Assembly: GCA_023150835.1 (NCBI GenBank)
Contig: JAKLKB010000019.1
Location: 3,260-67,259, forward strand
Source of the DNA: Myxococcota bacterium
Lineage (GTDB): Bacteria > Myxococcota_C > UBA6777
DNA length: 64,000 bases
Reading direction: 5' to 3'
Shown here: one piece after another, positions 17,721 through 60,401 of the stretch
Position numbering within the stretch: position 1 is the first letter of the stretch
How the letters are laid out: every line of letters begins with the position of its first letter
Position numbers and translations under genes: made by a program
Notes under the pieces: model-generated
The model's input: only the letters and a program-made list of their open reading frames with translations
Database searches by the model: none
Told to the model about the DNA's origin: nothing

Positions 17721-17834
17721 ATACGGTATCCGAGAGATCTGTGATCGAAGAAGAGCGCCCAGACGCCCTGTGCTTGGGCAGCCACAGGGGGCTGCCCCTA
17801 CTTTTTTACGATCACACAATGGGCGGATTTCGTG
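17721..17834 (+). mobile_element. MITE-like palindromic element, copy A
   Basis: Begins ATACGGTATCCG and ends CGGATTTCGTGG, the family's imperfect terminal inverted repeat. Inside are AGACGCCCTGTGCTTGGGCA and GGGGGCTGCCCCTAC, nested inverted repeats that would fold into a long hairpin. No coding capacity. It abuts the last unit of the hairpin array. Confidence 0.85.
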
Positions 17835-17878
17835 GAACTCCTAACCAGAATGAGATCTTTGCCCAAAAAGCAAAGATC

Positions 17879-18775
17879 TCAAGATTTTTGGAGAGCGGCG
17901 AGGAAGATGGGTCCGTGTGGAGAGCGATCGGGGAGGATGTGGTAGCCGTGTTGGGTGGTTTCGGCGTAGGGTGGGAGATCGAGAGGGAGGAAGACGAAGG
18001 CGGAGGGTTTTTTGTGGAGCAAGCGGGCGAGGACGAGATCGTTTTCAAGGGGAGAGATGGAGCAAGTGCTGTAGAGGAGGCGTCCTTGGGGTTGGAGGAC
18101 TTGGAGGGCGGAGGCGAGCATGGTGTATTGGCGTTGTGCGAGTTGTTTGGAGCGAGCGGGGGTCCAATCAAGAAGGAGAGAGGGTTGATGGAGGAGGTGG
18201 CGTTCGGAAGAGCAAGGGGCATCGAGAAGGATGTGGGTATAGGCGTTGGTTTGGTGGAGGCACCAGCGTTCGGCGTCGTGTCCCGTGATAGAGAACTGGC
18301 TGTGGAGGCTGGTTGGGAAGTAAGAATGGAGGACTTGGCGAAGGCGTTGTCGGCGTTGTGCGGAGCGGTCGTTGGCGGTGAGGTGGCCGTGAGGTCCGAG
18401 CATGGAGGCGAGGATGGCGGACTTTCCGCCGGGCGCAGCGCAGAGGTCGAGGATCTTGGCGTGGGGGGGAGGGTTTAAGGCCAAGGCCACCCAGACAGAG
18501 GCCGCATCGAGCAGATAAGCGCAGGGGATCCCTTGTGGATCGAGGGCGGGTGGAGGGAAGGTTGCGGCGGAATAGCAGCCGTTGGGGGCGTCGTGCGTGG
18601 TGGCGTCGGGTGGGAGCCAAGCAAGCGGGTCAAGAGAGGTGTGTGGATTCCACCAAGCGACGTGGTGCGAAGGAGCACACAAGGCTTCGCGCAAGAGCGG
18701 CCAGCGTTCGCCCCATTGTTGTTGATACCACGCATCAAACGCGGAAGGGCCTTTGGTGGTGTGTTGTTTTGGCAT
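17879..18775 (-). CDS. RsmB/NSUN-family RNA m5C methyltransferase
   Basis: 298 residues from the ATG at 18775. Motif I ILDLCAAPGGKS at about residue 118, motif IV DAPCSSERH with one catalytic cysteine, and motif VI LLYSTCSISPLEND with the second cysteine of the 5-methylcytosine RNA methyltransferases. The N-terminal ~110 residues lack the NusB-like domain of RsmB, so the protein is closer in architecture to RsmF-type or mitochondrial NSUN3/4 enzymes. The target (rRNA or tRNA) is not clear. It starts eight bases after the kynA stop and is almost surely cotranscribed with it, although the two functions are unrelated. Confidence 0.85.
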   Translation of the reverse strand: MPKQHTTKGPSAFDAWYQQQWGERWPLLREALCAPSHHVAWWNPHTSLDPLAWLPPDATTHDAPNGCYSAATFPPPALDPQGIPCAYLLDAASVWVALALNPPPHAKILDLCAAPGGKSAILASMLGPHGHLTANDRSAQRRQRLRQVLHSYFPTSLHSQFSITGHDAERWCLHQTNAYTHILLDAPCSSERHLLHQPSLLLDWTPARSKQLAQRQYTMLASALQVLQPQGRLLYSTCSISPLENDLVLARLLHKKPSAFVFLPLDLPPYAETTQHGYHILPDRSPHGPIFLAALQKS

Positions 18776-18783
18776 GGTGGAGA

Positions 18784-19689
18784 TCAGGGGGTGCTGGGGT
18801 GGAGACTGAGATGGGTTCGGACTTCCCAAAGGAGAGGGAAGCATTGCTTGTGGGTGGTGCGTTCGAGGTAGTCGACGCCGCTGGAGCCGCCCGTTCCGGG
18901 TTTGAGTCCGATAATGCGGGAGACGACACGGACGTGATGTTCGCGCCAGAGGGCGATTTGGGTATCGAGGTCGATCATGGATTCGGTGAGGAGATAGAGC
19001 GGCATTTGATCGAGGGGGTTGCGGTAGATTTGCAAGAGAACGCGGAGGACACGTTCTTTGTTGTCGGGATGTTCGGCGAGGTGCTTGAGGTCGGTGTGTG
19101 GGGGGATATCCATTCCAAGGTCTCGGAGCATGGTGTAATAGATCTCGCGCAGATCGGGTTCTTGGAGACGCTGTTCGAGACGGGACTTGAGATCGGGGCG
19201 GTCGTCAAAGAAGCGGAGATAGGCGGGGTTTTTGAGTCCCGCAAAGAATTCAAGTTCGCGGAACTGGATGGATTGAAAGCCGCTTGCGGGTTTGAGATGA
19301 TCGCGGAAGCGCAAGAAGTCGACAGGGCGCATGGTTTCGAGGATATGGATCTGCTGGACAAGGACGCGCATGATCTGAACGCAGCGATCGAGGAAATGAC
19401 GGGCTTGAAGGATATGCAGTTGGCGCATTTTTTCGGCGCAATTGGTGAGTTCTTGGAGGATTAGCTTGAACCAAAGCTCGTAGGTTTGGTGGATGATGAT
19501 GAACAACATCTCGTCATGTTCGGGCGGATCGGATTGGGGAAATTGAAGTTGCAAAAGTTCTGGGACTTTTAGGTAGTCGTTGTAGGTCATCTCTGCGCGA
19601 GTGTAGCTGCGTAGCTGTTGGAGTTCGCTTTCTTCGGTGCGCGTGGTAGGATGGGTGGGCGGTGTCAGCGAATCGTGCGATCCAGTCAT
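18784..19689 (-). CDS. kynA: tryptophan 2,3-dioxygenase
   Basis: 301 residues, ATG with GGGAG upstream. Family signatures are clear: TYNDYLKVPELL, FIIIHQTYELWFK with the distal His67, SGFQSIQFRELE, the proximal heme ligand region WREHHVRVV, and GTGGSSGVDYLERTT near the C terminus. The enzyme is a cytosolic heme tetramer that opens the indole ring of tryptophan to N-formylkynurenine, the first step of the kynurenine pathway. No other kynurenine-pathway gene is in the window; the next gene in the operon is an RNA methyltransferase. Confidence 0.97.
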   Translation of the reverse strand: MTGSHDSLTPPTHPTTRTEESELQQLRSYTRAEMTYNDYLKVPELLQLQFPQSDPPEHDEMLFIIIHQTYELWFKLILQELTNCAEKMRQLHILQARHFLDRCVQIMRVLVQQIHILETMRPVDFLRFRDHLKPASGFQSIQFRELEFFAGLKNPAYLRFFDDRPDLKSRLEQRLQEPDLREIYYTMLRDLGMDIPPHTDLKHLAEHPDNKERVLRVLLQIYRNPLDQMPLYLLTESMIDLDTQIALWREHHVRVVSRIIGLKPGTGGSSGVDYLERTTHKQCFPLLWEVRTHLSLHPSTP

Positions 19690-19814
19690 GTTCGTTCGGC
19701 TCCCTTGGACGTGGGTGGGTTTCGAGGCCGCCCATACCTAGCATGGATTGGATTTGAGTGGCAACGTGGATGGTTGGGAGATTGGAGCGCACGGAGCGCG
19801 CAAGGAGTGGATGG

Positions 19815-22439: not shown

Positions 22440-22664
22440 GGGTGTCGTGGGTGGGAGAAGATTTTGTGAGATCGTACTTGCGAAACGCATTTGGATGTGG
22501 TAGATAACCCGCCCAATGTTGAGGAGGCTCTCAACAAAAACACACACGTTCTTGCTGACTTGGAGGGGTGTTTGAGTGGCGATGCTCAGATTTCCAAGAA
22601 GCATGAGAGGACGTGGAGGCATAACCCGAAGATCCGAAGAGATCGATTGAAGGAGAAAGATCGC
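22440..22664 (+). promoter_or_regulatory. rpsB upstream region with short hairpin
   Basis: 225 bases ahead of the ribosomal protein operon. A weak -35/-10 pair is possible (TTGCGA at 22478, 17-base gap, TAGATA at 22501). A small inverted repeat GTTGAG-gaggct-CTCAAC at 22518-22535 lies in the presumed leader. Autoregulatory leaders are known for rpsB in other bacteria, but I cannot match this one to a known motif. Confidence 0.3.
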
Positions 22665-23474: not shown

Positions 23475-23489
23475 GAAAGGATAACGCAG

Positions 23490-24149: not shown

Positions 24150-24239
24150 TCGAGCATCGAGTTTTTCATGGACGTATGCTGCGCCGAACCCACCCGCTAC
24201 GAAGTGGGCAGGTTGTCGACGAAAGCATCGAAGAGATGG

Positions 24240-24280: not shown

Positions 24281-24343
24281 TGTGTGGTGCGAACCTGCGG
24301 TGATTGTGGGTTTGAGGAAGGCACAGAGGAAAAGGAGCGGCTC

Positions 24344-31339: not shown

Positions 31340-31454
31340 ATACGAGATCCGAGAGATGTGTACGCAAAAGATCGTGCGTAGACGCCCTGTGCTTGGGCAG
31401 CCACACCTGTCTGCCCCTACATTTTTACGATCACGCAACGGGCGGATATCGTAT
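31340..31454 (+). mobile_element. MITE-like palindromic element, copy B
   Basis: Begins ATACGAGATCCG and ends CGGATATCGTAT, nearly exact inverted repeats. Internal GTAGACGCCCTGTGCTTGGG and TCTGCCCCTACATTTTTACG are shared with copies A, D and E. Its right end reaches into the stop codon of the secreted-protein gene at 31454. Confidence 0.9.
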
Positions 31455-37043: not shown

Positions 37044-40000
37044 GAGGAAGAAGAGCAAAGCAAAGAAGAAGAACAAGGCTGGTTCTGTGGGTGAGAGAGA
37101 AGTGCAGCTACACCCGGGGGATTGGTAGCGGGATTCTGCGGTGGGATCGTCGTTTTGGTTGCCTGTTTGTTTGTTGTCGTCTTCTTTGGCGACGGTGTCG
37201 GATGCTTGGGGGGTGTCTTGGGTGGGGTTGTCTTGGGCGGTGGGATCGTCGTTGTGGGAAGGGCCGTCTTGTTGGGGGTCGTTGTCTTGGGGCGAGGCGT
37301 CTGCGTTTGTTTCGGTGGAGATCTCGGTGGTTGCGCCATCTTGTGTGGACTCGTTGTTGTTTTCGTCCGAAGGCTCGGCGCTGGGTTCTTGTCCGTTGGG
37401 GAGGCAGACGGTTTTGTCGCCTTGGAGGATACAATGGCTGCCATCGGGGCAGGTGACAAGGAAACAAGCATCGACGCAAGTTCCGGCGACACAGCGTTTT
37501 CCTGTTGCGCAATTCGTGTTTTTGCAAGCGTCACCGATACAGACGCCATTTTCGCAGGTGAGTCCGGCGGGACATTCACCGCCGCTGCACTTGCGGCGGC
37601 ACTCTCCCGCGTTGCACACCAAACTCGGCGGGCAGAGGGGGTTTCCGTTGGTTTCGTTGTCGATCTGGCCGTCGCAGTTGTTGTCTTTGCCGTCGCAGAT
37701 CTCGTTGTTGGGTTTGGGGGCGTCGCAGTTTGTCCATTGGCCGTTGGTACAGGTCTCTTTGCCTTCGCCGCAGGCCGAGCTACAGGTGCGAGCGAGTCCG
37801 TTGTCGATCACGCCGTCGCAGTCGTCGTCTTTGCCGTTGCAGGTCTCGGATTCGGGAGAAGGGCCAGAGCAACCGCCCCATTTTCCGCCTTGACAGGTGG
37901 CGGTGCCTTGACCACAAGGGCCTTGGCAAGGGCGTGGTGTGAGTCCGTTGTCGATCTGGCCGTCGCAATCGTCGTCTTTGCCGTTGCAGTCTTCGGCTTG
38001 TGGTTTGGGGGCATCACAAAAGGCCCATTGACCGGCGATACAGCGTTCTTTTCCACTTCCGCAAGTGGTGGAACAAGCGCGTTCAGGGACGTTGTTGTCG
38101 ACGAGGCCGTCGCAATCGTCATCGGTGTTGTTGCATTGTTCGGGGGCGGGCTGACGGGCGCTACAGCTTTCCCACTTGCCAGCTTTGCAGATCTCAAAGC
38201 CCGTCCCACAAGCGTTGCTGCAAGATTGGGTGAGGTTTTCGTCGATCAATCCGTTGCAATCGTTGTCGATCCCATCGCAGATCTCGGGTGTAGGGGCTTT
38301 TCCAGCGACGGAACATTCAACGCCCGTTCCGTCGGACTTGCATACAAACGTCCCTGTTTCTTTGCAAGCGCCCATGCCCACAGAACAGGGCTGGCCCTTG
38401 GTTGGGAAGTCTTCGTCGACTTTGCCGTCGCAATCGTCGTCTTGTCCGTTGCAGATATCTTTGTCGCGGGGTGGGATATTGGCGGTGTGAAAGTTGTTGG
38501 TTTTGTCGCATTCGTTGCGGGTTTGTTTGCCGGAGCCGTCGTCGTCGGCGGCGGCGTAAGCGCGGTTGGGGAGTGTGGGGAGAGGGGTCACGGAGACGGT
38601 GAGGAAGATGCCTTGGCCGGGTTCGATGTCGCGGGTGGTGAGGACGGTGGCGAGTTTTTGTTTAAGGCCCGTGGGATCGCCTTGATAGATCGTGACGGGG
38701 AGTTGGGCGGGGATCTTTTTTGCACCTTGATTGAAGATCCAGACGCCCGCAAGGAGTTTGTTGGGAGCGCTATCGCAAGCGAACCGTAGATCTTTGAGGA
38801 TGAGATCTGCGGCTTGGAAAAGTCCCGATCCTTGGACGTTTTGGCGAAAGTTGTTCAGGCTCGGTAGCTTCCAGTTTTCAATTGGTTTTTTAGGAGGCTG
38901 TCCAAAACGGTGGCCGGGCGGGCAAAACGGATCGGTCGGGCCTGTGCAGATGTTGGTGACGTTGTAAGCGTGTTGGTTCCAGACGTTGCGGGTGTCGACC
39001 CAGTTGTCGAGGGTGTCACGAAAGACCCGCAGCCGTCGCATGGAGCCGTTGTTCGAACTAAAGACGATCTCGGCGCGACCATCGTTGTTGACGTCTACGA
39101 TCACGGGATATTCGAGCGTGGTGGCCGAGCTATTGGCGGTGGAATAAAGAACACTGCCTGTCGTGCCGTTGAAAACGCGCATATAGACTTCGTCGTTGTA
39201 GACGACTTCGGCCTTGCCATCGCCTTCAAAGTCAAAGACAGAAGAGCCTGTTTGGGCGGAAGAGTGGTCTTGGGTTTTGAAGGACCACAACAGCGTGAGT
39301 TTTTTGTTGGGGATATCGACGGAATAAACGACGTAGTAGTCACGCCCAGCCGAAGCGATATCGGGGTTTTTATCACCGTTAAAGTCGGCGACTGTCGGCG
39401 GACCACCGCCACCGCCCGGGATGGCGATACTGGCGATCAATGCGCCTGTTTGGCCATGATGAACGCGGATGGCTCCTCCGCTAACGACCACGACTTCGGG
39501 CTTTCCGTCTTTGTCAAAGTCTGCGACCGCAGGATATCCGTCCGAAGCACCGTTGCTCCACATCGTGCTGCAATCTTTACGAAAAGCCCGTGAACCCGTC
39601 ACGATCTCTTGGATGCCATCCCCATCAAGATCGGCGATCACCGAAACAGGCCGAACATCGGGAGAGCCGTTGCCCCCCGTTCCTTGGCAAAGAACCAAGC
39701 CATCGCTTCCGCGTACGACGGCGCTTCCGACGATCACTTCGACGTTTCCGTCCCCATCGAGATCGGCGATTGCAGGCCCCCCCCAACTCACCGTAAGAGG
39801 GACGACTTGGCCGTTGGCGTCATGGCTTACCCACTTGAATTTGCCCGTGTTGTCGAAGGCCAAGAGGCCACTATTCCACACACTTTTTCCAGCGTAGCGG
39901 GGGGCGACGATATCAGGTTTGCCGTCGTTGTCGATATCGCCGACCGCGATCGCGCCCAAACCGTTGACGCGGTAGGCTGGATCGCTGACGGTAAAGATCT

Positions 40001-40586
40001 CTTGGCCGTTGTCACCGCGCAGCGCACGAACCACGCCTTCTTCAGCGTAAGAACCGCCGCTGACGTAGCTGGTAAAGATCACAGAGGGCATATCTTTTTC
40101 GTCGATCTTTCCGTCGTTGTTGGAGTCTTGGAGCGCCATGACGACAGGCGTCATCATCACGTTTGCAAAGGTCGGAAGGATCGAGCTTCCCGCCCACTCC
40201 CAAAGCGGAGAGGGGGAAAATTGGCCGATGGGTGGGCGATAGGTGCATTGTGCGTTGGTGGGGATCTGGGGAAAGCATCGTTTGAGTTCGAGGTTGCAGT
40301 AATTTCCCGCTGCGCAGTCGGCCTGTTGTTGGCAAGCAGGGCCTTGGTTGGTGCAAGCCCCTTGGTAGCAGAACTGTTGGTTTGCACAACAAGAAGTCCC
40401 GCATTGTTGGGCGATGAGGCATTGTGCGGTGGCAGAGCTTGGGAGAAGCCACAAGCCCCACACCACACAGACCGCGAAGCCAAGGGAGGCGGCGTGGGAG
40501 CGGTGGAATAGAGCGGAAAGAAGCGGCTTGAAGAGGCCGTCCCTCAGCAAAGGAGAAGCACAAGAGCAAGAGTGTTTTTGAGCCAT
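37017..40586 (-). CDS. giant MYXO-CTERM surface protein: FG-GAP propeller plus MopE repeats
   Basis: 1189 residues from the ATG at 40586 with AGGTGG upstream. An N-terminal signal-anchor-like region ends near SSATAQ. After a Cys-rich segment, residues about 120-520 form an FG-GAP/VCBS propeller with calcium-loop motifs (DSNNDGKIDE, DIDNDGKPDI, DLDGDGNVEV, DVNNDGRAEI). A CARDB-like stretch at about 580-690 precedes MopE-type units (NGKDDDCDGQIDN, DGKDNNCDGQIDN) at about 700-960 and EGF-like cysteines. A Asn/Asp/Gln/Thr-rich linker leads to the C-terminal GCSC, a hydrophobic helix and RPRRRR, a MYXO-CTERM sorting tail. Such tails are processed by an intramembrane myxosortase and lead to lipid-type surface anchoring. 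Confidence 0.88.
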   Translation of the reverse strand: MAQKHSCSCASPLLRDGLFKPLLSALFHRSHAASLGFAVCVVWGLWLLPSSATAQCLIAQQCGTSCCANQQFCYQGACTNQGPACQQQADCAAGNYCNLELKRCFPQIPTNAQCTYRPPIGQFSPSPLWEWAGSSILPTFANVMMTPVVMALQDSNNDGKIDEKDMPSVIFTSYVSGGSYAEEGVVRALRGDNGQEIFTVSDPAYRVNGLGAIAVGDIDNDGKPDIVAPRYAGKSVWNSGLLAFDNTGKFKWVSHDANGQVVPLTVSWGGPAIADLDGDGNVEVIVGSAVVRGSDGLVLCQGTGGNGSPDVRPVSVIADLDGDGIQEIVTGSRAFRKDCSTMWSNGASDGYPAVADFDKDGKPEVVVVSGGAIRVHHGQTGALIASIAIPGGGGGPPTVADFNGDKNPDIASAGRDYYVVYSVDIPNKKLTLLWSFKTQDHSSAQTGSSVFDFEGDGKAEVVYNDEVYMRVFNGTTGSVLYSTANSSATTLEYPVIVDVNNDGRAEIVFSSNNGSMRRLRVFRDTLDNWVDTRNVWNQHAYNVTNICTGPTDPFCPPGHRFGQPPKKPIENWKLPSLNNFRQNVQGSGLFQAADLILKDLRFACDSAPNKLLAGVWIFNQGAKKIPAQLPVTIYQGDPTGLKQKLATVLTTRDIEPGQGIFLTVSVTPLPTLPNRAYAAADDDGSGKQTRNECDKTNNFHTANIPPRDKDICNGQDDDCDGKVDEDFPTKGQPCSVGMGACKETGTFVCKSDGTGVECSVAGKAPTPEICDGIDNDCNGLIDENLTQSCSNACGTGFEICKAGKWESCSARQPAPEQCNNTDDDCDGLVDNNVPERACSTTCGSGKERCIAGQWAFCDAPKPQAEDCNGKDDDCDGQIDNGLTPRPCQGPCGQGTATCQGGKWGGCSGPSPESETCNGKDDDCDGVIDNGLARTCSSACGEGKETCTNGQWTNCDAPKPNNEICDGKDNNCDGQIDNETNGNPLCPPSLVCNAGECRRKCSGGECPAGLTCENGVCIGDACKNTNCATGKRCVAGTCVDACFLVTCPDGSHCILQGDKTVCLPNGQEPSAEPSDENNNESTQDGATTEISTETNADASPQDNDPQQDGPSHNDDPTAQDNPTQDTPQASDTVAKEDDNKQTGNQNDDPTAESRYQSPGCSCTSLSPTEPALFFFFALLFFLVRPRRRRI

Positions 40587-40867
40587 GATGCCACCTAAAA
40601 GCAATTAAGGGGGAGTGGTACGATACCCAAGTGATGTACACATAAAGAAGAGTGCGTATGCGCCCGACTATAGGGCAGCCACAGGGATCTGCCCCTACCT
40701 CTTTATGATCACACAACGGGCGGATTTCGTACCACACCAAACAACAGGAAGATCTGCGCACTTCGCACATCAAGTATCGAGAGGATCGAGCGTTTGGTTG
40801 TGAGCGGGGGAAACGTCGAACAAGCAGAGATGGTGGAGAGATGGAGAGGTTTGGAGAAGACGGGGGG
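40587..40867. other. intergenic region between the two MYXO-CTERM genes
   Basis: About 280 bases containing MITE copy C (40615-40735) and otherwise no recognised gene or structure. Confidence 0.6.
40615..40735 (+). mobile_element. MITE-like palindromic element, copy C
   Basis: Begins GTGGTACGA and ends TCGTACCAC, an exact 9-bp terminal inverted repeat that extends imperfectly inward. The interior TAGGGCAGCCACAGGGATCT and GCCCCTACCTC matches the family; the left arm has diverged from the other copies. Confidence 0.85.
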
Positions 40868-43800
40868 TTAGGCGACGGGGCGACGGCGGCGTGCAAAAGC
40901 GATGAGCAAGAGGAAAAGACCGAAGAGAAGGGCTGCTTCGCTGGATGCGACGCTTGTACAAGCACAGCCCGGGCTTTGGTACCGCCCACCTGTGTTGTCT
41001 TGGTCTTTTGTATTTCCTGTTTGGGTGCCGCCTGTTTCTTTTTGTCCGCCGTCTGTGGTGTTGTCCTGCTCGGTGTTGGTGTTGTTCTCGGTGTTGGTCG
41101 GAAATTCGGTGTTGTTTTCGGCGTTTGTGTTTTCGGCGTTTGTGTTTTCGGTGTTTGTGTTTTCGGTGTTTGTGTTTTCTGTGCTGGGATTTTCGGGTGT
41201 GGTGGCTTTGTGGCACTGTGCGTTTCCATCAAGGACGACGCAGGAAGCGCCTGAGGGGCATTGGATGCCGTGACAAGGGTCGTGGTCACAGACGCCCCCG
41301 TAGCAAGTGCGTCCTGTGGGGCATTGGACACCCACACAGGGATCACCGACACATTTTCCAGCGATACATGTTTGGCCTTGGCTGCATTGGACGCCATCGC
41401 AGGGGCCTGTTTGTTTGGGATCGTCTTCGCACTTGCCGTCAACGCAGCGTTGTTTGGCGGAGCATTGGACATCCGTGCAACTGTCGACGCACTTTCCTTC
41501 GCGACAGAATTGGCTTGTGCTGCATTTGACGCCGCTGCATGGGTCGGAGACGCATTGCTTGTTGACGCAGCGCTGTCCGTTTGGACAGCCTTGGGTATAA
41601 CAGCTTTGTTCTTCGCACTTTCCGGCTTTACAGAGGGAGCCGTCGGGGCAGGTGACAAAGAAGCAAGCATCGATACATTTTCCAGCGACGCAGCGTTTGT
41701 CGGGATCACAGGTCATGCTTTTGCAGGGATCGCCGATGCAGATACCATTTTCGCAGGTAAGTCCGGCGGGGCATTCGCCCTTGTTGCACTTTTGGCGGCA
41801 TTGTCCGTCGCTACAGACCAACCCAGAGGGGCAGAGGGGGTTTCCGCTGGTTTCGTTGTCGATCTGACCATCGCAGTTGTTGTCCTTGCCGTCGCAGATC
41901 TCGTTGCTGGGTTTGGGGGCGCTGCAATTTTCCCATTGGCCGTTTTTGCAGATCTCTTTGCCTTCGCCGCAGGCCGAGCTACAGGTGCGGGTGATGCCGT
42001 TGTCGATCACACCGTCGCAATCGTCGTCTTTGCCGTTGCAGATCTCGGTTTCGGGAGAAGGGCCAGAGCAACCGCCCCATTTTCCGCCTTGACAGGTAGC
42101 GGTGCCTTTTCCACAAGGGCCTTGGCAGGGGCGTGGTGTGAGTCCGTTGTCGATCTGGCCGTCGCAGTCGTCGTCTTTGCCGTTGCAGTCTTCGGCTTGT
42201 GGTTTGGGGGCATCACAAAAGGCCCATTGACCGGCAACACAGCGTTCTTTTCCACTGCCGCAAGCGGTGGAACAAGCGCGTTCGGGGACGTTGTTGTCGA
42301 CTTGACCATCGCAGTTGTCGTCGATGTTGTTGCATTGTTCGGGAGAAGGTTGGCGGGCGCTACAGCTTTCCCACTTGCCATTTTTGCAAACTTCAAAGCC
42401 TGCGCCACAAGCGCTACTACAAGCTTGGGTGAGGTTTTCGTCGATCAATCCGTTGCAATCGTTGTCGATCCCGTCGCAGATCTCGGGTGTTGGGGGCTTG
42501 GCGGCTGCGGCACATTGGGTTCCGTTACCATCGGCCTGACAGACCCACGTTCCTGTGTTTTTACAAGCGCCAGCACCGACTTCGCACGATTGTCCGAGGG
42601 TAAGGAAGAAGTCTGCGTAGCTGAGTGTTGCTGTTTGAAGGACTGGACTATCGCGACTGTCCGAAGTTTCGAGTAAGAATTCGATCTCGACAAAGCGGTT
42701 GGGAGTGATGCCGAGGGGCTGTCCTTTTCCGGTGTAAAGCCCCCATGCAGCGGTCGCAAGAGCAGCTTGGGTCAGCGCACTACGCGCACGCACTTTGATG
42801 GTTTTTTGGGGGCTGGTATTTGAATCGGTCCACGTCACGGAGTTGAAGTGAGACTTGCATTGCGAGTCAAAGACTTGGCGGATGGTACCCGAAGAAGGAG
42901 CCACGATCGCAAACAGCGTAAAGCCCGTCATATCCGAGTAAGTGTAGGGGTTGGATTGTACTGGAGAAGAGCAAGCACAAGCACACGCACCCGGGACGAA
43001 ACAAAAGCAAGGCTTGGTTCCACCAACGTCGCAGATCGGATAGGCCCCGACTTTGGCACCGTTTGAGGTGTTGAGTTTGTAGGCGAGACCTTCGCTGTAA
43101 GAGTTGGCCCATGTAAAACCTTTGGAGTCGACGGCGATCCCGATGGTATGGAGTCCAACGTCTGTGTAGTTGGTGGTCGTGCCAGCAGCGGCGTTGATAA
43201 ACGAGACGAGGCGGGTATTGGCACCGGCAGCATCGTTTGAACAAGCTACCCACACGTTGCCGTTTCCGTCGATGGCGACGCCACGTCCCATTCCGCCGAT
43301 CGGGTAATCTTGGCGAGCGCCTGTTTGTGCGTTGAATTTGTACAAGACGCGATTGCCGTAAGAAGCGGCCCAGACGTTGCCGTTTCTGTCGGCGGCGATG
43401 CCATAAACACTCGGAGCGGAGTATTCGCCCGTCACGGTGCCGGTCGTCGAGTCGATCCGAACCACAGTTCCACGGCATCGCGCAGACACCCAGATATTGT
43501 TGAAGGAGTCTGTGGCGAGTCCGTAGGTACAGATGCGTGGGTCAAGGACGCGTCGTTTGATCTGATAGCTGGTTCCATCGATCTGTACGACAGAATAGTT
43601 GCTTCCGCTGTAGGCTCCCCAACCCCCCGCCCAGATATCGCCGTTCTTGTCGACGGTCACACCCCGAGGACCGGGAGCGACGTTGTGCGAGACGATAAAC
43701 TTTCCTTCGGCGGTGACCGCTGCTACATAGTTGGACGATCGCAAGCCGACCCACACATTTCCGCGTGAGTCGACCGTTGTCCGCGAAGGGCTTCCACCGA

Positions 43801-44122: not shown

Positions 44123-44769
44123 TTTTTATCCTCCTGCGCTGTGTTGACCATGTGCCGAGTAAGATAGCGAAGATCGTTTGGATTCTATCGTGGATCGTCT
44201 CAGTTTGCCAAGATTTGATATCTTTCTGAGGAGTCGTTGTTTGCGAACAATGCGGCCTTTGCGTGAGCCTTTTGTGGGCTGACCCCGATGTTTCGGGGAT
44301 GTTGGTTCTGCTTGCATCCTGCCTGCTCTGGCTTGTTGCTTTGGAAGTGTTCGCAGCTCAACAAGGCTTGAGCCGATCCATCGTTTTCGGGTATGGCGCG
44401 CCATTTGTTGCGTTGGCGCTGTCGCGTTGGTTGCGTGGCGATTTGCAGTGTCCGCTGCTCTGCCGTATGCGCTCATACGAGAGCCGAGAGATGCGTGATC
44501 GAAGGGTCGATGCGAGCCGCTGTCGACGCCCTGTTGTTGGGCAGCACAGGGGGTCCCTACGTTTTTCGATCACGCCCCCTGCGGATTTCGCACTCATCAG
44601 CACAGACCCAAGAGGGGCTTGCTTTGGCTCATCTGTTTTTTTTTGAACCTTTGTTCTTGACTTTTTTTGAACTTTTGTTAAACCAAAAAGCCTTGTTGGG
44701 TTAAGCCGCGTGTAGAGATGGGTATTTTGGTTGATTTTGCGCGGGAGTAGGTGACGTGAGGGGTTTGAG
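44123..44769. other. long intergenic region with MITE copy D
   Basis: About 650 bases between divergent genes. It holds MITE copy D (44475-44593). Short open frames here run through the MITE or lack ribosome sites and were not accepted. A T-rich stretch near 44640-44680 with TTGACT could include the promoter of the lipoprotein gene at 44770; this is weak. Confidence 0.5.
44475..44593 (+). mobile_element. MITE-like palindromic element, copy D
   Basis: Begins ATACGAGAGCCG and ends CGGATTTCGCA. Shares GACGCCCTGTTGTTGGGCAG, GGTCCCTACGTTTTTCGATC and the terminal repeats with the family. No coding capacity. Confidence 0.85.
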
Positions 44770-46344: not shown

Positions 46345-48171
46345 GTGATGTTGTGGTGTCGGGCAGTCGTGCGTGGGATCGGGATCGGATGGTGTGGTTG
46401 GTTGATGATGCTGTGGTCGTGCCAAGCGCCACAAGAACCGGGCTGTGGGGATGGAAAGACGCTGTGTTCAGCGCGATGCGTGGATCTTGCGAGTGATGTG
46501 GGCCATTGTGGGGCGTGTGGGAAAGCGTGCGGCGCAACCGAGCGTTGTGTAAAAAGCCGATGTGTCGGGCTTTGCGATGGAAAACAAGTGCGTTGTGGCG
46601 AGGCTTGTGTGGATGTGCAAGCGACACGTGCGCATTGTGGGGCGTGTGGGAAAGCGTGCGGTGCAACAGAAGCTTGTGTGGAAGGGCGTTGTGTGTCTTC
46701 GTGCGGGTCGTTGGGGAAAGTCGCGTGCAGTGAGACGTGTGCGGATCTACAGACGGATGTTGCGCATTGTGGTGTGTGTGGGAAGGCTTGTGATGTGACG
46801 GAACGATGCGTGTCTGGGGTGTGTTCGTGTGCTTCAGGAGAAGGCCGATGTGCGGGGCGTTGTGTCGATCTGCGAGCCTCACGAGAACATTGTGGGGCGT
46901 GCGGTGTGGCTTGTGCGGATGGTCAGTCCTGTGCGAGCGGAGTGTGCGTTGCAGTATGCCCTGAAGCGACGCCGTTGTTGTGTTTGGGCGGATGTATCGA
47001 TGTCACGCGAGATTCCCGTCATTGCGGGGGATGTGGGAAGGCGTGTGCGCTGGATCAAGAATGTGTCGGGGGTCAGTGCCTTTGTGCAGAGGGGCTGATG
47101 CGTTGTGGGGATCGTTGTGTGGATGTGATGGCGAATGGTGCGCATTGTGGGGCGTGTGGTTTGGCCTGCGAAGGGGGGCAGGTTTGTTCGGCGGGGGCGT
47201 GTGTGGCTTCGTGTCCTGCGGCGACAGCGACGGTTTGTTTGGGAGGTTGTGCGGATACGCAAAACAACTCATTGCATTGCGGTGCGTGTGGGAAAGGGTG
47301 TACGTGGGGGCAGTATTGTGAAAAGGGAGCGTGTCGTTGTCCCGAAGGACAGGGCTTTTGCGATGGGGCGTGTGTGGATCTGAAGGTGGATCGGCTGCAT
47401 TGTGGGGCGTGCGGGAAGGCTTGCGCGGGGGGGCAGCTTTGCGATGAGGGCGCGTGCGTTGCGAACTGTGCGGCCTCCAAAAAGGCGTGTTATGGGGGTT
47501 GTGTGGACGTATCAAACAATCCGCGTCATTGCGGGGGATGTGGTGTGGTTTGTCGCGCAGGGACGGGCTGTGTCAAAGGGCAGTGTCAGTGCGCGGCAGG
47601 TCAAGTGCGTTGTGGTCGGTCATGTGTGGAAGTGGCGGCAGATCCGTTGAATTGTGGGCGTTGTGGTCTGGCTTGTGGGATGGGCGAGCGTTGCGTGGAG
47701 GGGCGTTGTGAAGTGGGTTGCAGTCCTTCGTATCCAGATCGCTGCGGAGATCGTTGTGTGGATCGCAAGCGCGATAACGCGCATTGTGGGGCGTGTGGCG
47801 TGGCCTGCCCGCAAGGGCAGCTTTGCGTGGAAGGCAAGTGCGCGTTGAACTGCCCTGCTGGACAGAGTCCGTGTGATGGGATCTGTGCGGATCTGCAAAC
47901 AGACACGCTGCATTGTGGTGTGTGTGGGAAGGCTTGTGCCTCGTACGAGCGTTGTGTCGCGGGAGTGTGTGCTTGCGAAGAAGGCGTGGGACGGGCGTGT
48001 TATACGGGTCCAGCGGGGACGGAAGGAAGAGGCGTCTGCAAGGGCGGCGTCTCGCATTGCAAACAAGGCCAGTGGTCGGCGTGTGTGGGCGAAGTGTTGC
48101 CCTCTGCGGAGATCCCGCAAGATCGGTTGGACAATAACTGCGATGGCCAAGTCGACGAAGTCGTGCCGTAA
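46345..48171 (+). CDS. Stig1-repeat lipoprotein with MopE-type tail
   Basis: 608 residues from the GTG at 46345 (ATG at 46348 equally possible). The signal ends LWSC, a lipobox. Twelve units of the form CxxxCVDLxxDxxHCGACGxxCxxGxxCxxGxC fill residues about 30-545; this is the pattern of the plant stigma protein Stig1 repeat, common in Myxococcota exported proteins. The last 60 residues contain a single MopE-type unit (DRLDNNCDGQVDE). The same architecture opens the next gene. Presumably a rigid disulfide-rich surface stalk; no enzyme domain is present. Confidence 0.85.
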   Translation: MMLWCRAVVRGIGIGWCGWLMMLWSCQAPQEPGCGDGKTLCSARCVDLASDVGHCGACGKACGATERCVKSRCVGLCDGKQVRCGEACVDVQATRAHCGACGKACGATEACVEGRCVSSCGSLGKVACSETCADLQTDVAHCGVCGKACDVTERCVSGVCSCASGEGRCAGRCVDLRASREHCGACGVACADGQSCASGVCVAVCPEATPLLCLGGCIDVTRDSRHCGGCGKACALDQECVGGQCLCAEGLMRCGDRCVDVMANGAHCGACGLACEGGQVCSAGACVASCPAATATVCLGGCADTQNNSLHCGACGKGCTWGQYCEKGACRCPEGQGFCDGACVDLKVDRLHCGACGKACAGGQLCDEGACVANCAASKKACYGGCVDVSNNPRHCGGCGVVCRAGTGCVKGQCQCAAGQVRCGRSCVEVAADPLNCGRCGLACGMGERCVEGRCEVGCSPSYPDRCGDRCVDRKRDNAHCGACGVACPQGQLCVEGKCALNCPAGQSPCDGICADLQTDTLHCGVCGKACASYERCVAGVCACEEGVGRACYTGPAGTEGRGVCKGGVSHCKQGQWSACVGEVLPSAEIPQDRLDNNCDGQVDEVVP

Positions 48172-48209
48172 GAAGGGGGAGTCGTGATGAGTCGGATATT
48201 TGGAAAGAA

Positions 48210-48280
48210 GCGAGTGTTTGGGATATTCGGAGATAGGCGAGCGTTTGGGATATTCGGAGATAGGCGAGCGTCTGGGATGG
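48210..48280. repeat. 27-bp tandem repeat, about 2.6 copies
   Basis: The unit GCGAGYGTTTGGGATATTCG followed by GAGATAG occurs at 48210 and 48237, with a partial third from 48264. Noncoding. Confidence 0.9.
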
Positions 48281-48327
48281 TGGGGATGCGACATCGCAAC
48301 TCCATCTTGTCCGATGGACGGGTGCGG

Positions 48328-48438
48328 GTCGATACGCGAGGCCATGAGAGCGTCGATCAGGTATTTGTGAAAGAGCGGGCAAGGCAACCGGTCGATACGC
48401 GAGGCCATGAGAGCGTCGATACGCGAGGCCATGAGATG
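48328..48438. repeat. 24-bp repeat, three copies
   Basis: GTCGATACGCGAGGCCATGA followed by GAGC occurs at 48328, 48391 and 48415; the last two are adjacent. A 39-base stretch separates the first from the second. Confidence 0.93.
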
Positions 48439-48528
48439 TTTGGGATGCGAGCCGATGGGGGCGAAAGCGTTTGGAATGAGCTTTCGTGTCGAGCCATCGC
48501 CAAAAGACAGCAGGCAAAGGGTCAAAAG

Positions 48529-51500
48529 ATGCAGCAGCGAATCGGTGTATGGGGCTTTTGGCGTGGCGTGATGGTGTTGTTGTGGGGGATGTGGGGAGTG
48601 GCCTGTCAGCCTCCCCAGCCCTCTTTGTTGTGTGAAACGGGAAAAGCCCGTTGTGGCGAGGCTTGTGTAGACGTCACGCAAGATCCGAAGCATTGTGGGG
48701 TGTGTGGGGCGGTGTGCCGTTCGGAGGAGCGCTGTGACAAGGGCTTGTGTGTGTTGCGTTGCGCGGCTGGGACGCAAGATTGCGCAGGGAATTGTGTGGA
48801 TATCTTGGCAAGCGAAAAGCATTGTGGCGCGTGCGCAAAAGCCTGTGCAACGGGCGAGCGTTGTTTTTTGGGTCGATGTGTTTCAGCTTGTCCGCCCAAT
48901 CTCCCCGATCTTTGCGAGGGGACGTGCGTGGACAAACGATCGGACCGCAAGCATTGTGGGGCGTGTGGTGAGATCTGTGCGGTGGGCCGAGTCTGCCAAG
49001 AAGGCGGATGCCGCTGTCCTATCGGGCAGTTCTTGTGTGGGAGTACTTGTGTCGATCCGATGACCAGTACGCAACACTGCGGAGATTGCAAGCGCCCTTG
49101 TGCAGAGGGCCAGATCTGTGCAAGCGGAACGTGCGTTCCTTCGTGTCCATCGGCAACACCGACGACGTGCTTTGGGGGATGTGTTGATACGCAAAGCCAC
49201 CGCTTGCATTGTGGGGGATGCGGTCGGGTTTGTTTGGCTGGACAAAGCTGCTCTGCGGGGAAGTGTTTGTGCGCCGAAGATATCACGGAGTGCGGAGATC
49301 GTTGTGTCGATCTGACCTCGGATTATGCGCACTGTGGGGCGTGTGGGGCGGCTTGTGCGGGAGGTCAGTTGTGTGCTTTCGGCGGTTGTGTGACGTCATG
49401 TCCTGCGGCAACACCCACCGCTTGTTTCGGCGGATGCGTCGACACACAAAGCAATCGATTGCATTGCGGAGCCTGCGGTACAGCCTGCGGAGCAGGGCAA
49501 TCTTGTATCCAAGGCAAGTGTGTGTGCCCTCCCAATCAAAAGCTTTGTGATGGTGTTTGCGTCGATCCTCGCGCCAACTTCCAACATTGCGGGACGTGTA
49601 TGCAGATCTGCGCGATGGGTGAGGTGTGTGGTGACGCGAAGTGCCAGATCCAATGCCCTGCGGCGACGGCGACGATCTGCTTTGGTGGTTGTGTCGATCT
49701 GCAAAGTGATACGTTGCATTGTGGCGGATGTGGCAAGCGTTGCGGCTTTGGAACGGCGTGTGAAAAAGGCCAGTGCGTTTGTGCTGTGGGGTTTGCGCTG
49801 TGTGGAGGGCGTTGTCAAGACCTTCAAAACGCACGTGCGCACTGTGGGGCGTGTGGCAAGGCGTGTGGGCCAACCGAGTCTTGCGTCAAAGGGGCGTGTG
49901 AGCCTGTGTGTTTGCGTGAAGCCCCGACGCGCTGTGGTGCGTTGTGCGTCGACACAAAGCAAGATGCCCGTCATTGCGGAAGCTGCGACAAAGCCTGTGC
50001 GCAAGGCGAGCGTTGCCGAGATGGTCAGTGCGTTCCCGAATGCCCTGTGGGGCAGACTCTTTGCGCGGGACAATGCTTCGATCTGCAACGTTCTTTGCAG
50101 CACTGCGGGACGTGCGGAAATGCTTGCGCGGCAGGGTCGGTGTGTAAAGCGGGGCGGTGCGATTGTGTGGATGGCGCTGTGCGCTCTTGCTATGAGGCTC
50201 CCGCCGCCACCAAGGGCGTGGGGCCTTGTGTCGCAGGTGAACAACGCTGTACAGCGGGTGTTTGGGGCCCTTGCACAGGGCAGGTATTGCCGAGTATCGA
50301 GATCAAGGACGGTGTGGACAATGATTGCGATGGGATGGTCGATGAGTCCGTACAAGTTCAACTTTTTGCGGGAAATTCGCTGCTGAAAAATGGTGGATTG
50401 CTGGAGGCGCGCTTTCATCAACCCGCACAGATCGTCTCGGATAGTGCGGGAAATCTGTATCTTGCAGATACCGCCAACCACATGATCCGAAAGATCGATC
50501 CACAAGGCAACGTGACAACCTTCGCAGGGACGGGTGTTCCAGCATTCAAAGACGGGACCGCTCTCCAAGCCACCTTCCAGCACCCCGAAGATCTCGCCTT
50601 TGACAGCAAAGGAAACTTGTACATCGCAGACACAGGCAACCACGCCATCCGCATGATCGATCTACAAGGCAACGTCAAGACGATCGCAGGTGCCGGAAAG
50701 TCGGGATTTCAAGATGGATCTGGTGGACAAGCGCTGTTCTTTTCTCCGCGTGGGATCGCGTTCGATAAAAATGGGACGCTTTTTGTTGCAGATACGGGCA
50801 ACCACGCGATCCGCAAAGTCGATCCACAAGGCCAAGTTAGCCTGATCGCAGGAAATGGCGTCGCTGGATTTAGTGATGGTACGGGCAAGATGGCTCAATT
50901 CGACGAACCCACCGATCTGGTCATCGACTCCGCAAACAACCTGTACGTCGCCGATTCGCAGAACCATCGCATCCGAAAGGTCGATGACAAGGGCGTCGTC
51001 ACCACCTTTGCAGGGGCGGGCCTTGCAGACTTTCTTGATGGAAAAGCTCAACAAGCGCGCTTTAAGGCTCCGCGTGGTCTGCTCTTGGACGGGGCTGGAA
51101 ACCTGTACGTCGCCGATGCCTTTAACCATCGTATCCGCAAGATCGACGCTCAAGGCAACGTCTCCACTCTTGCAGGGACGGGAAATGCAGGGTTTAAGGA
51201 CGACACAGGCTTGAATGCGCAGCTCTATCGGCCTTCTGGACTGGCGCTCGATAACAAAGGCGACTTGATGATCGTCGACACAGAAAACAAGCGTGTTCGC
51301 AAACTGTCGCTGAATACGGGGATTGTCACCACGTTGACGGGCGATGATCCGCGTGGTTTTGTCGATGGTTCGGTCGGGCAAGCCAAGTTCAATCGCGTTT
51401 CCGCTGTCACCACCGATCTCACCAACGGAGATGTGTTTGTGGCCGACAGCGAGAATCATCGCATCCGAAATGTCGATCCCAAGGGCCTGACCACCACGCT

Positions 51501-53144: not shown

Positions 53145-54224
53145 TTAGGGGGTGGCTTGGCGGAGGGTGCCGTTTTCGAGGTCGCGGATGGGGGTTCCGT
53201 CGGCGGTATTGCTGAATTGGATGCCACCGCCGCGTTCAGCGGCAGTGGTTAGGCTTGGGGACATCTCAAAGCCCCATGCCTTGAGCAAGGCGATCGGGTC
53301 GATGAATTGTTGTTCGCCTTGGGCAGCGAGGCGACTCAGGCGGCCCGACATCTCGACATTTTGGACGACACCGCCGCGAACATCGAGGTGGCCCATGTAG
53401 AGGACGCGCTTTCCGCGTGCGAGAGCAGGGTTGGTGAGGATCACACGGCCTTCTTCGTCTCGGCGCGCCGCAGGGAGGGCGTGGATCGAACCATCCGAAA
53501 GGATGGCGAAGTTGTTGGCCCACTTTTGTCCTGAGCTACCGCGTGCGTAGATATCTTCGTGCATTCCTTCGTCGTAGTGTGCTGCGATATCACCTGTACC
53601 CCCCGCACGACGGTCATAATCGATGCGCGTCATGCGTTGTCCACCCGGGCCCAGTTCGCTGCGCGGTGTGATCACGTTGTATTCGCTTGGATCGTTTTTA
53701 TCGTCTTGGAGGGCTTTGGGCGTGATCTCGGTGTAGTCAAAGCGCATATTGCCGGAGGGTTTGGACATGGAGGGATAATCGCTGTAGACGCCTTTGACTT
53801 CGCCGCTGCTGCTGCGTTTGGTGTCGTTGACATCAAAGGGTTCGAGTCCACTTGCGTAGGCTTTGGAGAGGAGTTCTTTGACGGCTGCGGGGATCGGGGT
53901 TCCACCGAAACTGGTGTCGCGGATGGTCTTGGCTTCTTCGAGAGATTCGGGTCGGATCAACTCACCTGCAAGCATGGGGAAGCGGACGCCTGCTTGTTGG
54001 GCTTCGTTGAAGGCTTCGAGGGTGGTGCGGTAGCCTGAGCGGTCAAAGCTGTTGCCTTGGACGTTGATGTTTTTGGCTTGCAAGACGGCATCGCGGATCG
54101 CGTTCATCTCGCCGGCATCGACGGACTTTCCAGCCGAGGCCACAGCTTTTTGGATATCTTGGGCGTCGAGCATCCCATCGCGGGTAAGCTGGCGCAGGGT
54201 GTCTTTGACTTGGCGAACAGACAT
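53145..54224 (-). CDS. unknown protein with N-terminal helical module
   Basis: 359 residues, ATG with AGGAG upstream, no signal peptide. The first 45 residues (LTRDGMLDAQDIQKAVASAG ... VDAGEMNAIRDAVLQ) form a helical pair also seen at the N terminus of the protein at 57277-58275. The rest is polar; GKRVLYMGHLDVRGGVVQNV and the following SGRL resemble a short C-terminal domain found in some secreted toxin-like proteins, but the match is only by eye. No family recognised. Positioned with two other leaderless proteins on the same strand. Confidence 0.65.
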   Translation of the reverse strand: MSVRQVKDTLRQLTRDGMLDAQDIQKAVASAGKSVDAGEMNAIRDAVLQAKNINVQGNSFDRSGYRTTLEAFNEAQQAGVRFPMLAGELIRPESLEEAKTIRDTSFGGTPIPAAVKELLSKAYASGLEPFDVNDTKRSSSGEVKGVYSDYPSMSKPSGNMRFDYTEITPKALQDDKNDPSEYNVITPRSELGPGGQRMTRIDYDRRAGGTGDIAAHYDEGMHEDIYARGSSGQKWANNFAILSDGSIHALPAARRDEEGRVILTNPALARGKRVLYMGHLDVRGGVVQNVEMSGRLSRLAAQGEQQFIDPIALLKAWGFEMSPSLTTAAERGGGIQFSNTADGTPIRDLENGTLRQATP

Positions 54225-54244
54225 CTTTGGCTCCTGTAGGTGTC

Positions 54245-54434
54245 ATACGAGATCCGAGAGAAGTGTGTTTGAAGGGTAGGTGCGATCCGCTGTAGACGCC
54301 CTGTTGTTGGGCAGCCACATACGCTTGGTGGGGGGATCGGTACCGCGCCAACGAGCGATCCGCTATAGACGCCCTGTTGTTGGGCAGGGGGCTGCCCCTA
54401 CGTGTTTTAATCGCACACCTTGGTGGATTTCGTG
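54245..54434 (+). mobile_element. MITE-like palindromic element, copy E (internally duplicated)
   Basis: Begins ATACGAGATCCG and ends GGATTTCGTGTCAC. It is about 75 bases longer than the other copies because GCGATCCGCTRTAGACGCCC and following bases occur twice (from 54282 and from 54355, period 73). It separates two genes of the leaderless-protein cluster. Confidence 0.85.
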
Positions 54435-54453
54435 TCACTTGTTGGTTTGGTGG

Positions 54454-57117: not shown

Positions 57118-57276
57118 CGTGGGCCTTTCTTTTTGAAACAAGCGCCAACGCGCCCTTCCTTCGGGGAGAATGGGGCGGTATGGTGGTGGGTCGTGTGGGC
57201 GCTTTGTTTGGAGGTGTGTCGCGTTTGGGAAACTGTCTTGCGTTATCGGATCGAATTGGAAAAAGTTTCGGCGCTC

Positions 57277-58275: not shown

Positions 58276-58490
58276 GTTGGATGCCCTTGTCGTGCAAAGT
58301 GGGGAGAGTGTTCGGTGGATTGGACGACAAGTCGATGTTTCATGTCAAGGATTTTTTGTCACGCGATTGTCACATGATTGCAGGCGAGATGTTTCACAAG
58401 CGGGGCGGGAAGAAGAGGGCGATGATCTCGATAGGAGTGACGCAGTATAATTCGCGGAAGGGTTGTTTTTGGGGTGGGTTGTCTCGGTGC

Positions 58491-59165
58491 TCAGGTGGCT
58501 TTTTGTGCGACGAGGCGGTATTCAAAGCGCAAAGCCCCGTTGAGAAGGACTTGTTTGAGTTGGCAGCCGCTGGACCATTGGATCTGGATGCGGCCTTCAA
58601 AGCGGTTGTTGAACTTGTTGCCTTGGAGTTGGCCGGTGCCGCTGATGTAGCTTTCTTCGACGCGGACACATTCGATGTTGGGGATGCCTTTGAGGCGCAT
58701 GGGTTCGCGGATACCGAGGGTGAATTGAAGGCGCGTGCCATCAATAAACCCTTCGAGTTTCACAGATTCACCGGCGGCGGAGGCTTCGACATCAAAGCGA
58801 TTGTTGGCGGTTTGGTTGAGTTGGGGCATGGTGATCGAGGCGGTGCCTGAGGTGGCTCTGAGAGGGCAGATCCTGTAATCGGTGCATAGGCAAAGTCGTT
58901 TGTTGGAAGCGGTGCATCCGTCGTTTCGGATGTCAACGGTGAGGGCGCCATCTTGGCTTTCAAAGACGCCTGTTTCTTTTTGGGGCAGTTCTGCGCCGCC
59001 AAGCAACAAACGAAGCTCGGAAAACTGGAGGTTGTAATTGCCGGGGATGGCTTTGGCGACTTCGGGATCGATGGGAGTGGGGATCGGGTTGAGGCCCACA
59101 CACCCGATGTATAGGGGAAGATAGAGAACGACAAAAAGCAAAGACACAAAGCGAAAGGTGTGCAT
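58491..59165 (-). CDS. putative lipoprotein, function unknown
   Basis: 224 residues from the ATG at 59165, five bases after GGAGG. Lipobox YIGC (Cys22). A beta-rich body has four to six cysteines (DGCTASNKRLCLCTDYRICP) and a tail ending FEYRLVAQKAT. No family recognised. A longer frame to 59405 lacks a signal and was rejected. Confidence 0.75.
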   Translation of the reverse strand: MHTFRFVSLLFVVLYLPLYIGCVGLNPIPTPIDPEVAKAIPGNYNLQFSELRLLLGGAELPQKETGVFESQDGALTVDIRNDGCTASNKRLCLCTDYRICPLRATSGTASITMPQLNQTANNRFDVEASAAGESVKLEGFIDGTRLQFTLGIREPMRLKGIPNIECVRVEESYISGTGQLQGNKFNNRFEGRIQIQWSSGCQLKQVLLNGALRFEYRLVAQKAT

Positions 59166-59325
59166 GAAGACCTCCTTGATCGGTTGGACAGCCACACAAC
59201 AACATAGGCGATCTTTTGTTGTGTGCCAAATCTTTGTGGACGCCTTCTGTTTGGGAAAAAGTTTCTTGTTGGATCTTGCGTGGTGGGCATTGACGCGGCG
59301 CTGGTTGAGGGAGGTCAACACCAAG

Positions 59326-60271
59326 ATGCTTTCAGGATACCCTGTAAAGCCGCGAAATACAAAAGAGAAAGCAACTTTAGAATTCAGCCTTTCAGCCAAA
59401 ACCAAATCTGCGGTTCGCTACGAAAGCACATACAACCCAAGGGACGAGGCGTGGGCAGGAAAAGCAGGGCGGCCTTGGAATCCCGGTCTGGTGATCTATG
59501 CCCATTCGGACGGCGGATTTTCTGTTTGGGATCCAGCGCGTAATTATTGGAAAAAGAAAGGGAACGTAGACGTCCAAGAGCGCCTTCCTGCATACGTTTT
59601 TACTGCATCGGAGGTGTGGGATGGTTTGTGGGTGGATGAAGACGGCCAACGGCGCACACCGATCTGTAACGGTTTGTTGTACGATTGGGCGAGTTGGATA
59701 CGAGAAAAAGGAAAAGAAGCGGACGCGATGCCAACAATGGCTGCAAGCGCACCCCGACGCGGCGAGGCCTCGCGATTATTGGTCTCCGTTTCGCTCGGCG
59801 TTGGCGGAGGGATTTCGAAATCTTTGCGCTTACGGTGCCATGTACGAACCTTCGGGCCAAGTCGATCATTTTGTGAGTTGGGACGAAGATCCGAGCCTTG
59901 CTTTTCGGTGGGAGAATTATCGCTACGCATCGGGTTGGTTGAATGCAAGCAAAAAAAACCTTCGATCTTCGGATCTGTTGGATCCTTTTATCGTGCAGGA
60001 TGGTTGGTTTGAGATATCTCTGCCTTCTCTTCAGTTGTTGGTTTCTGCCTCGATTCCTCCAACCATCAGGGCCAAAGCAGAGAATTTGTTGACACGCCTT
60101 CATTTGCGCGATGATGAGCGCGTGATTCGTCAACGTCGTGTGTGGCTTGATCTGTATGAAAAAGGAGATCTGAGTTTGTCAGGCTTGCGTGTGATGGCTC
60201 CGCTGGTTGCGGATGCGGTGGAAAAGCAGGCCAAAAATTGCGTCTCGAATAAGAGTGACGCAGTTCGATAG
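59326..60271 (+). pseudogene. HNH-like nuclease gene with a frameshift
   Basis: Two overlapping frames give one protein of about 314 residues if one A is removed from the AAAAA run at 59705-59709: the 5' part (from ATG 59326, behind GGGAGG) ends in WASWIREK and the 3' part continues WLQAHPDAARPRDYW. The joined product has CAYGAMYEPSGQVDHFVSWDED ... WENYRYASGWLNASK, which fits HNH-type nucleases (Cys, then DH, then a W-NY-N-K core), followed by DPF and GWFEI. The original N-terminal half has no known domain. It could be a true inactivating frameshift, a sequencing error in a homopolymer, or slippery translation. Confidence 0.7.
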
Positions 60272-60286
60272 CTTTTGTGGGGTGTC

Positions 60287-60401
60287 ATACGAAATCCGCA
60301 GGGCGCGTGATCGTAAAAACGTAGGGGCGTCCCCTCGTGGCTGCCCAATAATCGGGCGTTTACGTACGACCCTTCGTGTACACATCACTCGGATATCGTA
60401 T
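60287..60401 (-). mobile_element. MITE-like palindromic element, copy F (inverted)
   Basis: Begins ATACGAAATCCG and ends CGGATATCGTAT, 11 of 12 positions complementary. The interior carries GTGGCTGCCCAATAATCGGG and CGTAGGGGCGTCCCC, the family core in the opposite orientation to copies A-E. Confidence 0.9.

What the first reader, a model, noticed from the sequence alone, without database searches (positions are those of the whole stretch)
17721..60401. Dispersed ~115-bp MITE-like palindromic element in at least six copies
Copies at 17721, 31340, 40615, 44475, 54245 and 60287 (inverted), and probably 63981, all intergenic. They share terminal inverted repeats around ATACGAAATCCG / CGGATTTCGTAT and a nested palindromic core with GTAGACGCCCTG and GGGCAGCC...GGCTGCCCCTAC. 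There is no ORF, and one copy in about 9 kb is a high density. Such elements need a transposase in trans, or a REP-type tyrosine transposase, elsewhere in the genome.
Basis: partly seen in the sequence, partly recalled or inferred. Interest (0 to 1): 0.72.

Follow-up and report, generated by a model that had tools for sequence, protein, structure and literature searches.

The report
MITE family with REP-like core
The repeat is a real, gene-less mobile DNA element, present at roughly 900 sites in this Myxococcota-type bacterium and inserted by an unidentified enzyme that duplicates three bases (TNA) at each new site; its middle looks like a second known kind of bacterial repeat (REP), which makes it a good but not revolutionary example of miniature transposons.

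Summary
Confirmed and extended. The window has six copies of a 113-bp element (TACGANATCCG...CGGATNTCGTA) and a seventh, partial candidate at the contig end. The exact terminal motif occurs 827 times in this 7.56-Mb genome and 228 times in a congener (MAG KLAP109), but only near background in three other genomes of the family. About 119 loci/Mb were found in a 1.98-Mb sample (about 900 per genome, about 1.5% of DNA).

It is a mobile element. Copies carry a 3-bp TNA target-site duplication (71/156 against 22.5 in shuffles; 69 of 92 TNA/TNA pairs share the middle base), a weak symmetric target CGNNTNANNCG, empty sites in the congener, and 24 head-to-tail junctions sharing one TNA.

The core, however, is a GTAG-tagged hairpin pair of REP type. 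The genome's only substantial RAYT-like gene carries related hairpins and adjoins an array of the same core. Best reading: a DDE-mobilised MITE carrying a REP dimer. No autonomous copy was found (Pfam scans of whole genomes; direct terminal-repeat search of about 26%). Paired columns show no covariation, so no RNA-structure role is supported. Copies favour convergent gaps.

The parts
17722..17834 (+). MITE copy 1, 113 bp; flanks CAA/GAA (no intact TSD)
31341..31453 (+). MITE copy 2, 113 bp, both termini near-perfect; flanks TGA/TTA
40619..40731 (+). MITE copy 3, 113 bp; flanks TGG/CCA (no TSD)
44476..44592 (+). MITE copy 4, 117 bp with a 9-bp insert and small deletions; flanks TCA/CTC
54246..54434 (+). 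MITE copy 5, 189 bp with an internal duplication of the left core; flanks TCA/TCA (intact TSD). The same insertion is present without the duplication in G001 (KLAP109), where the left flank reads TCG
60288..60400 (-). MITE copy 6, 113 bp; flanks TCA/TCA (intact TSD)
63970..64000 (+). probable partial seventh copy (core left half, GTAGACGCCC at 63989), cut off by the contig end; left terminus not recognisable

Best explanation
The repeat is a non-autonomous miniature transposon (MITE). Shown: a 113-bp body with inverted termini TACGANATCCG/CGGATNTCGTA, a 3-bp TNA duplication at insertion, a weak palindromic target CGNNTNANNCG, lineage-specific insertions with empty sites, and expansion confined (in the genomes held) to one genus. 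Inferred: a DDE transposase acting in trans binds the termini and joins the element to 3-bp staggered cuts centred on TNA, as IS5/PIF-Harbinger-type enzymes do. Inferred: the CGTA tip plus its flanking TNA recreates half of the preferred target, so new copies can insert beside old ones and make head-to-tail chains that share one TNA. Inferred: the core is a captured head-to-head dimer of GTAG-type REP hairpins, a repeat class normally tied to a RAYT tyrosine transposase. Internal tandem amplification of the core happens in place, probably by slippage. Positions are filtered by selection away from promoters; no host function is needed to explain the data.
For: Terminal motif 827 copies against 5 in the control. 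3-bp TSD 71/156 against 22.5 in shuffles, no excess at 1, 2, 4 or 5 bp; same result in G001, 17/36 against 5.4. After removal of tandem copies 61 of 79 TNA/TNA flank pairs have the same middle base, p 3e-22; CG at -5,-4 of the target 28/122 against 7.9% background, p 2e-7. Empty site with one TGA at G000 C192:31378, near-clean ones at C16:2933 and C232:10119; shared insertions elsewhere. 24 head-to-tail junctions sharing TNA, none in the control, and 115-116-bp periods = 113 + 3. Near background in G002-G004. IS5/PIF-Harbinger-type elements use 3-bp TSDs of this kind (PMC4482050).
Against: No transposase with these termini was found: the DDE hits have other ends or are fragments, and 2.6 Mb of sequence held no terminal-repeat-bounded gene. 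About half of the full copies lack an intact TSD, as expected of old copies but not proved. Only one empty site is fully clean; the others carry nearby differences. The IS5-like label rests on the TSD alone.
Confidence: 0.88

Rival explanations
1. A REP/BIME family mobilised by a RAYT (REP-associated tyrosine transposase), with the outer palindrome only a conserved surround.
For: Core hairpins carry outward GTAG tags; a RAYT-like gene holds related GTAG hairpins in frame and adjoins five 43-bp core copies. REP dimers inside longer palindromes are on record (PMC3733652).
Against: The moving unit is the whole 113 bp with a 3-bp TSD and single-TNA empty sites; HUH tyrosine transposases make no TSD (established knowledge). 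The RAYT match is below the curated cut-off of NF047646.
Confidence: 0.05
2. A selected host element, for example a bidirectional transcription terminator or RNA hairpin placed between genes, rather than a selfish MITE.
For: Strong consensus fold; enrichment in convergent gaps, 50/129 against 20% of intergenic bases; terminator-like hits at two window copies.
Against: No covariation of paired columns across 119 copies; no orientation bias in tandem gaps, 27 against 33; no Rfam match; restricted to one genus. Convergent enrichment is also expected from selection against promoter damage.
Confidence: 0.04
3. Copies spread by segmental duplication or tandem amplification rather than by transposition.
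For: Tandem arrays occur at about 14% of loci, and the G001 RC500 copy is flanked by a direct repeat of about 70 bp.
Against: Copies share sharp ends, unrelated flanks and TSDs, and empty sites keep a single TNA.
Confidence: 0.02

Closest known systems
Bacterial MITEs (Nezha, NEMIS, RUP, ERIC, Bcr1; listed in PMC3733652)
   Same: 70-300 bp, no coding capacity, terminal inverted repeats, many intergenic copies, mobilised in trans
   Different: New termini and core; TNA duplication; chains sharing one TNA; GTAG hairpin pair inside; no autonomous partner identified
IS5 / PIF-Harbinger-type (PHIS) transposons and their MITEs (PMC4482050)
   Same: 3-bp target duplication of TNA type with a symmetric target preference
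   Different: Termini TACGANATCCG match no IS seen here; no IS5-type transposase with these ends found; an IS5-like remnant in the genome has other ends (GAGGGTGTTTGCG)
GTAG-tagged REPs / BIMEs moved by RAYTs (PMC3733652)
   Same: Core hairpins end in GTAG on the outside, as in head-to-head dimers; RAYT-like gene with related hairpins in the genome; REP dimers set inside longer palindromes are recorded for Anabaena variabilis and H. neapolitanus
   Different: The moving unit is the whole 113 bp with a TSD, not a 20-40 bp REP

Membership tests
MITE | Short, non-coding, with terminal inverted repeats | tested here: met
   113 bp, TACGANATCCG/CGGATNTCGTA
MITE | Target-site duplication at copies | tested here: met
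   3-bp TNA, 71/156 against 22.5; 61/79 after removing tandem copies
MITE | Empty sites in relatives | tested here: met
   One clean site and two near-clean sites in G001
MITE | High copy number, dispersed | tested here: met
   235 loci in 1.98 Mb; 827 exact termini
MITE | Autonomous relative with the same termini | tested here: inconclusive
   None found; termini search covers about 26% of the genome and 10% of G001; four Pfam families scanned, of which ISAzo13 rang in no control
IS5/PIF-Harbinger-type element | 3-bp TNA-type target duplication | tested here: met
IS5/PIF-Harbinger-type element | IS5-type DDE transposase with the same ends | tested here: inconclusive
   No such gene among hits of PF13359, PF01609, PF13586
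REP/BIME moved by RAYT | GTAG-tagged hairpin | tested here: met
   145 of 157 GTAGGGGCAG hairpins in the sample lie inside element hits
REP/BIME moved by RAYT | RAYT gene associated with the same repeats | tested here: inconclusive
   RAYT-like ORF at G000 C113 with related hairpins inside and a core array beside it; NF047646 57 bits, below the cut-off of 80
REP/BIME moved by RAYT | Unit moves as a 20-40 bp REP or dimer without TSD | tested here: not met
   The moving unit is 113 bp with a 3-bp TSD

The most novel reading that the evidence does not exclude
Two mobility systems are stacked in one 113-bp element. A DDE transposase moves the whole unit by its outer termini, while a RAYT recognises the GTAG hairpins in the core and drives their local tandem amplification. 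The element's CGTA tips imitate the target, so it preferentially chains onto itself.
Probability: 0.2. Interest if true: 0.6.

Novelty: new member of a known kind. Interest (0 to 1): 0.4.

Why it matters
It is a well-documented, recently active MITE family in a thinly sampled Myxococcota-type lineage: about 900 loci, with a clear insertion signature and empty sites. It suggests that a GTAG REP dimer can ride inside a DDE-mobilised element, a route by which REPs could spread without RAYT activity. The repeats may also contribute to assembly breaks in these MAGs.

Tried and rejected
RNA function through conserved structure: rejected for lack of covariation and no Rfam match. RAYT as the main mover: rejected because of the TSD. 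Autonomous partner among DDE_Tnp_1, DDE_Tnp_4, DDE_Tnp_1_2 and ISAzo13 hits: none has the right ends; the ISAzo13 search rang in no control, so it does not exclude that family. Larger terminal-repeat-bounded units (366-451 bp) turned out to be copies with a nested second repeat or an amplified core. Terminal motifs outside elements were mostly chance or degenerate. The first TSD counts included both-strand duplicates of palindromic hits and were replaced by de-duplicated counts. Plasmid, phage and viral collections: no match. One search was a mis-specified query.

Full report
WHAT WAS CHECKED. The seventh, at the window end, is a fragment at the end of contig C146. The repeat is not chance: the terminal motif TACGANATCCG occurs 414+413 times in the 7.56-Mb genome against 2+3 for the reversed control.

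ANATOMY. Aligned copies give a 113-bp consensus: TACGATATCCGAGTGATGTGTGATCGAAGGATAGTGCGTAGACGCCCTATTCTTGGGCAGCCACAGGTGGCTGCCCCTACATCTTTACGATCACACAACGGGCGGATTTCGTA. The outer 11 bp are near-perfect inverted repeats around one free base (N), which is not kept complementary. A second, weaker inverted pair (TGTGTGATCG / CGATCACAC) follows. The core holds two overlapping hairpins whose GTAG tags point outwards: GTAGACGCCC on one strand and GTAGGGGCAG...CTGCCC on the other. Consensus folding is strong (RNA z -6.3; DNA z -5.5). However, across 119 copies the observed pairing equals that expected from column composition. The palindrome is thus explained by the paired ends and hairpins, without evidence that the fold is selected.

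MOBILITY. In a 1.98-Mb sample of the genome (plus the window) de-duplicated hits form 235 loci, 119 per Mb, about 900 extrapolated to the genome and 1.5% of the DNA. Of 156 full copies, 71 have identical 3-bp flanks (shuffles: mean 22.5, maximum 34); there is no excess at 1, 2, 4 or 5 bp. The flank is TNA, with all four middle bases used about equally; after removal of tandem copies 61 of 79 TNA/TNA pairs agree at N. Outside the TNA there is a weak palindromic preference, CGNNTNANNCG. Part of the congener G001 (KLAP109, labelled Myxococcota) aligns to G000 at roughly 90-94% identity. There G000 C192:31378 has a clean empty site with one TGA; C16:2933 and C232:10119 have nearly clean ones. Other insertions, including window copy 54246, are shared. 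Insertion therefore happened both before and after the two species split. Some copies are 97-99% identical to their nearest relative.

CHAINS AND AMPLIFICATION. The genome has 24 junctions TCGTATNATACGA (0 in the control), i.e. elements end to end sharing one TNA; G001 has none. The element tip CGTA plus its TNA reproduces half of the preferred target, which can explain the chains (inference). About 14% of loci contain tandem arrays, either 115-116-bp whole units or smaller pieces, mostly of the core, with varying junctions. This looks like slippage or template switching; involvement of a RAYT is not shown.

DISTRIBUTION. G000 has 827 motifs, G001 228, and G002-G004 12-20 against controls of 5-9. 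Outside these five genomes (all that are held of the phylum) 36 genomes gave nothing. Plasmids, phages and viral contigs gave nothing. G002 has a 76-bp array related to the inner part (GATCGTARAAACATGTAGGGGCAGAC) without the termini, so the interior may be older than, or independent of, the expansion by the outer ends.

MOVER. A 3-bp TSD with a symmetric target is the habit of IS5/PIF-Harbinger enzymes (PMC4482050). HUH tyrosine transposases leave none (established knowledge). I did not find the enzyme. DDE hits in the genome have other ends or are fragments, and no terminal-repeat-bounded gene was seen in 2.6 Mb. A gene of a family not covered by the four Pfam models, lying in the unsampled part, would have been missed, and high-copy long elements tend to be lost from MAG assemblies.

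REP LINK. GTAG-tagged hairpins are the mark of REPs thought to be moved by RAYTs, and REP dimers inside longer palindromes are on record (PMC3733652). The genome has one substantial RAYT-like ORF, at about C113:53280-54080 minus. It matches NF047646 with E 1.9e-15 but below the curated cut-off. It carries two GTAGGGGCAGGCCCCTGTGCCTGCCC hairpins and IGQAQ-coding repeats in frame, and adjoins five 43-bp copies of the element's core followed by a degenerate element end. The matching ORF in G001 is shorter, 187 aa. This supports, but does not prove, that the core is a captured REP dimer.

CONTEXT. With a crude gene finder (84% coding), 129 of 152 copies are intergenic; most of the 23 overlaps are at called gene starts and may be start miscalls. 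Convergent gaps hold 50/129 copies against 20% of intergenic bases, divergent gaps 19/129 against 26%. There is no orientation bias in tandem gaps. Selection against hitting promoters is the simplest reason.

VERDICT. A real, large, recently active MITE family with a REP-like core; a new member of a known kind. The unusual points are the density, the chaining at shared TNA, and the probable REP cargo.

Noticed in passing
window 17362-17711: A 41-bp minisatellite directly beside MITE copy 1; a related array (about 91% identical) lies at G000 C12:25697-26020.
   Followed up: no
G000 C90:67048, C150:46961, C204:3367-3505, C1, C2:32455, C172:89, C192:181: A second GTAG-hairpin family without the MITE termini, in tail-to-tail form (TTGCCCCTAC - about 23 bp - GTAGGGGCAGGCCCCCGTGCCTGCCC), often close to contig ends.
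   Followed up: no
G000 C12:1-281, C4:30987-31265, C6:6853-7114, C104:71101-71371: A dispersed repeat of about 270 bp, often at contig ends and in places nested inside the MITE.
   Followed up: no
G000 C238, locus L169 about 1460-1900: An internally deleted IS5-like remnant with ends GAGGGTGTTTGCGAAAAA and TTA flanks, inserted exactly at a MITE end, in the TNA of that copy.
   Followed up: partly
G000 C113 about 53280-54080 (minus): A RAYT-like gene with GTAG hairpins and IGQAQ-coding repeats in frame, between its two conserved halves; the ORF is 310 aa against 187 aa in G001.
   Followed up: partly
window 46465-50150 and 37430-42500: Long arrays of apparently cysteine-rich coding-type repeats, and a duplicated segment of about 860 bp (88% identical) of repeat-protein type.
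   Followed up: no
window 60521 and G000 C132:79747-79988: Another inverted-repeat motif (GGACTTACGCA / TGCGTAAGTCC) that looks like the end of a different mobile element; at C132 it lies inside a MITE copy.
   Followed up: no
G001 RC500 15239-15350: A MITE copy flanked by a direct duplication of about 70 bp that spans a gene's 3' end; the congener G000 has a single copy and no MITE there.
   Followed up: no
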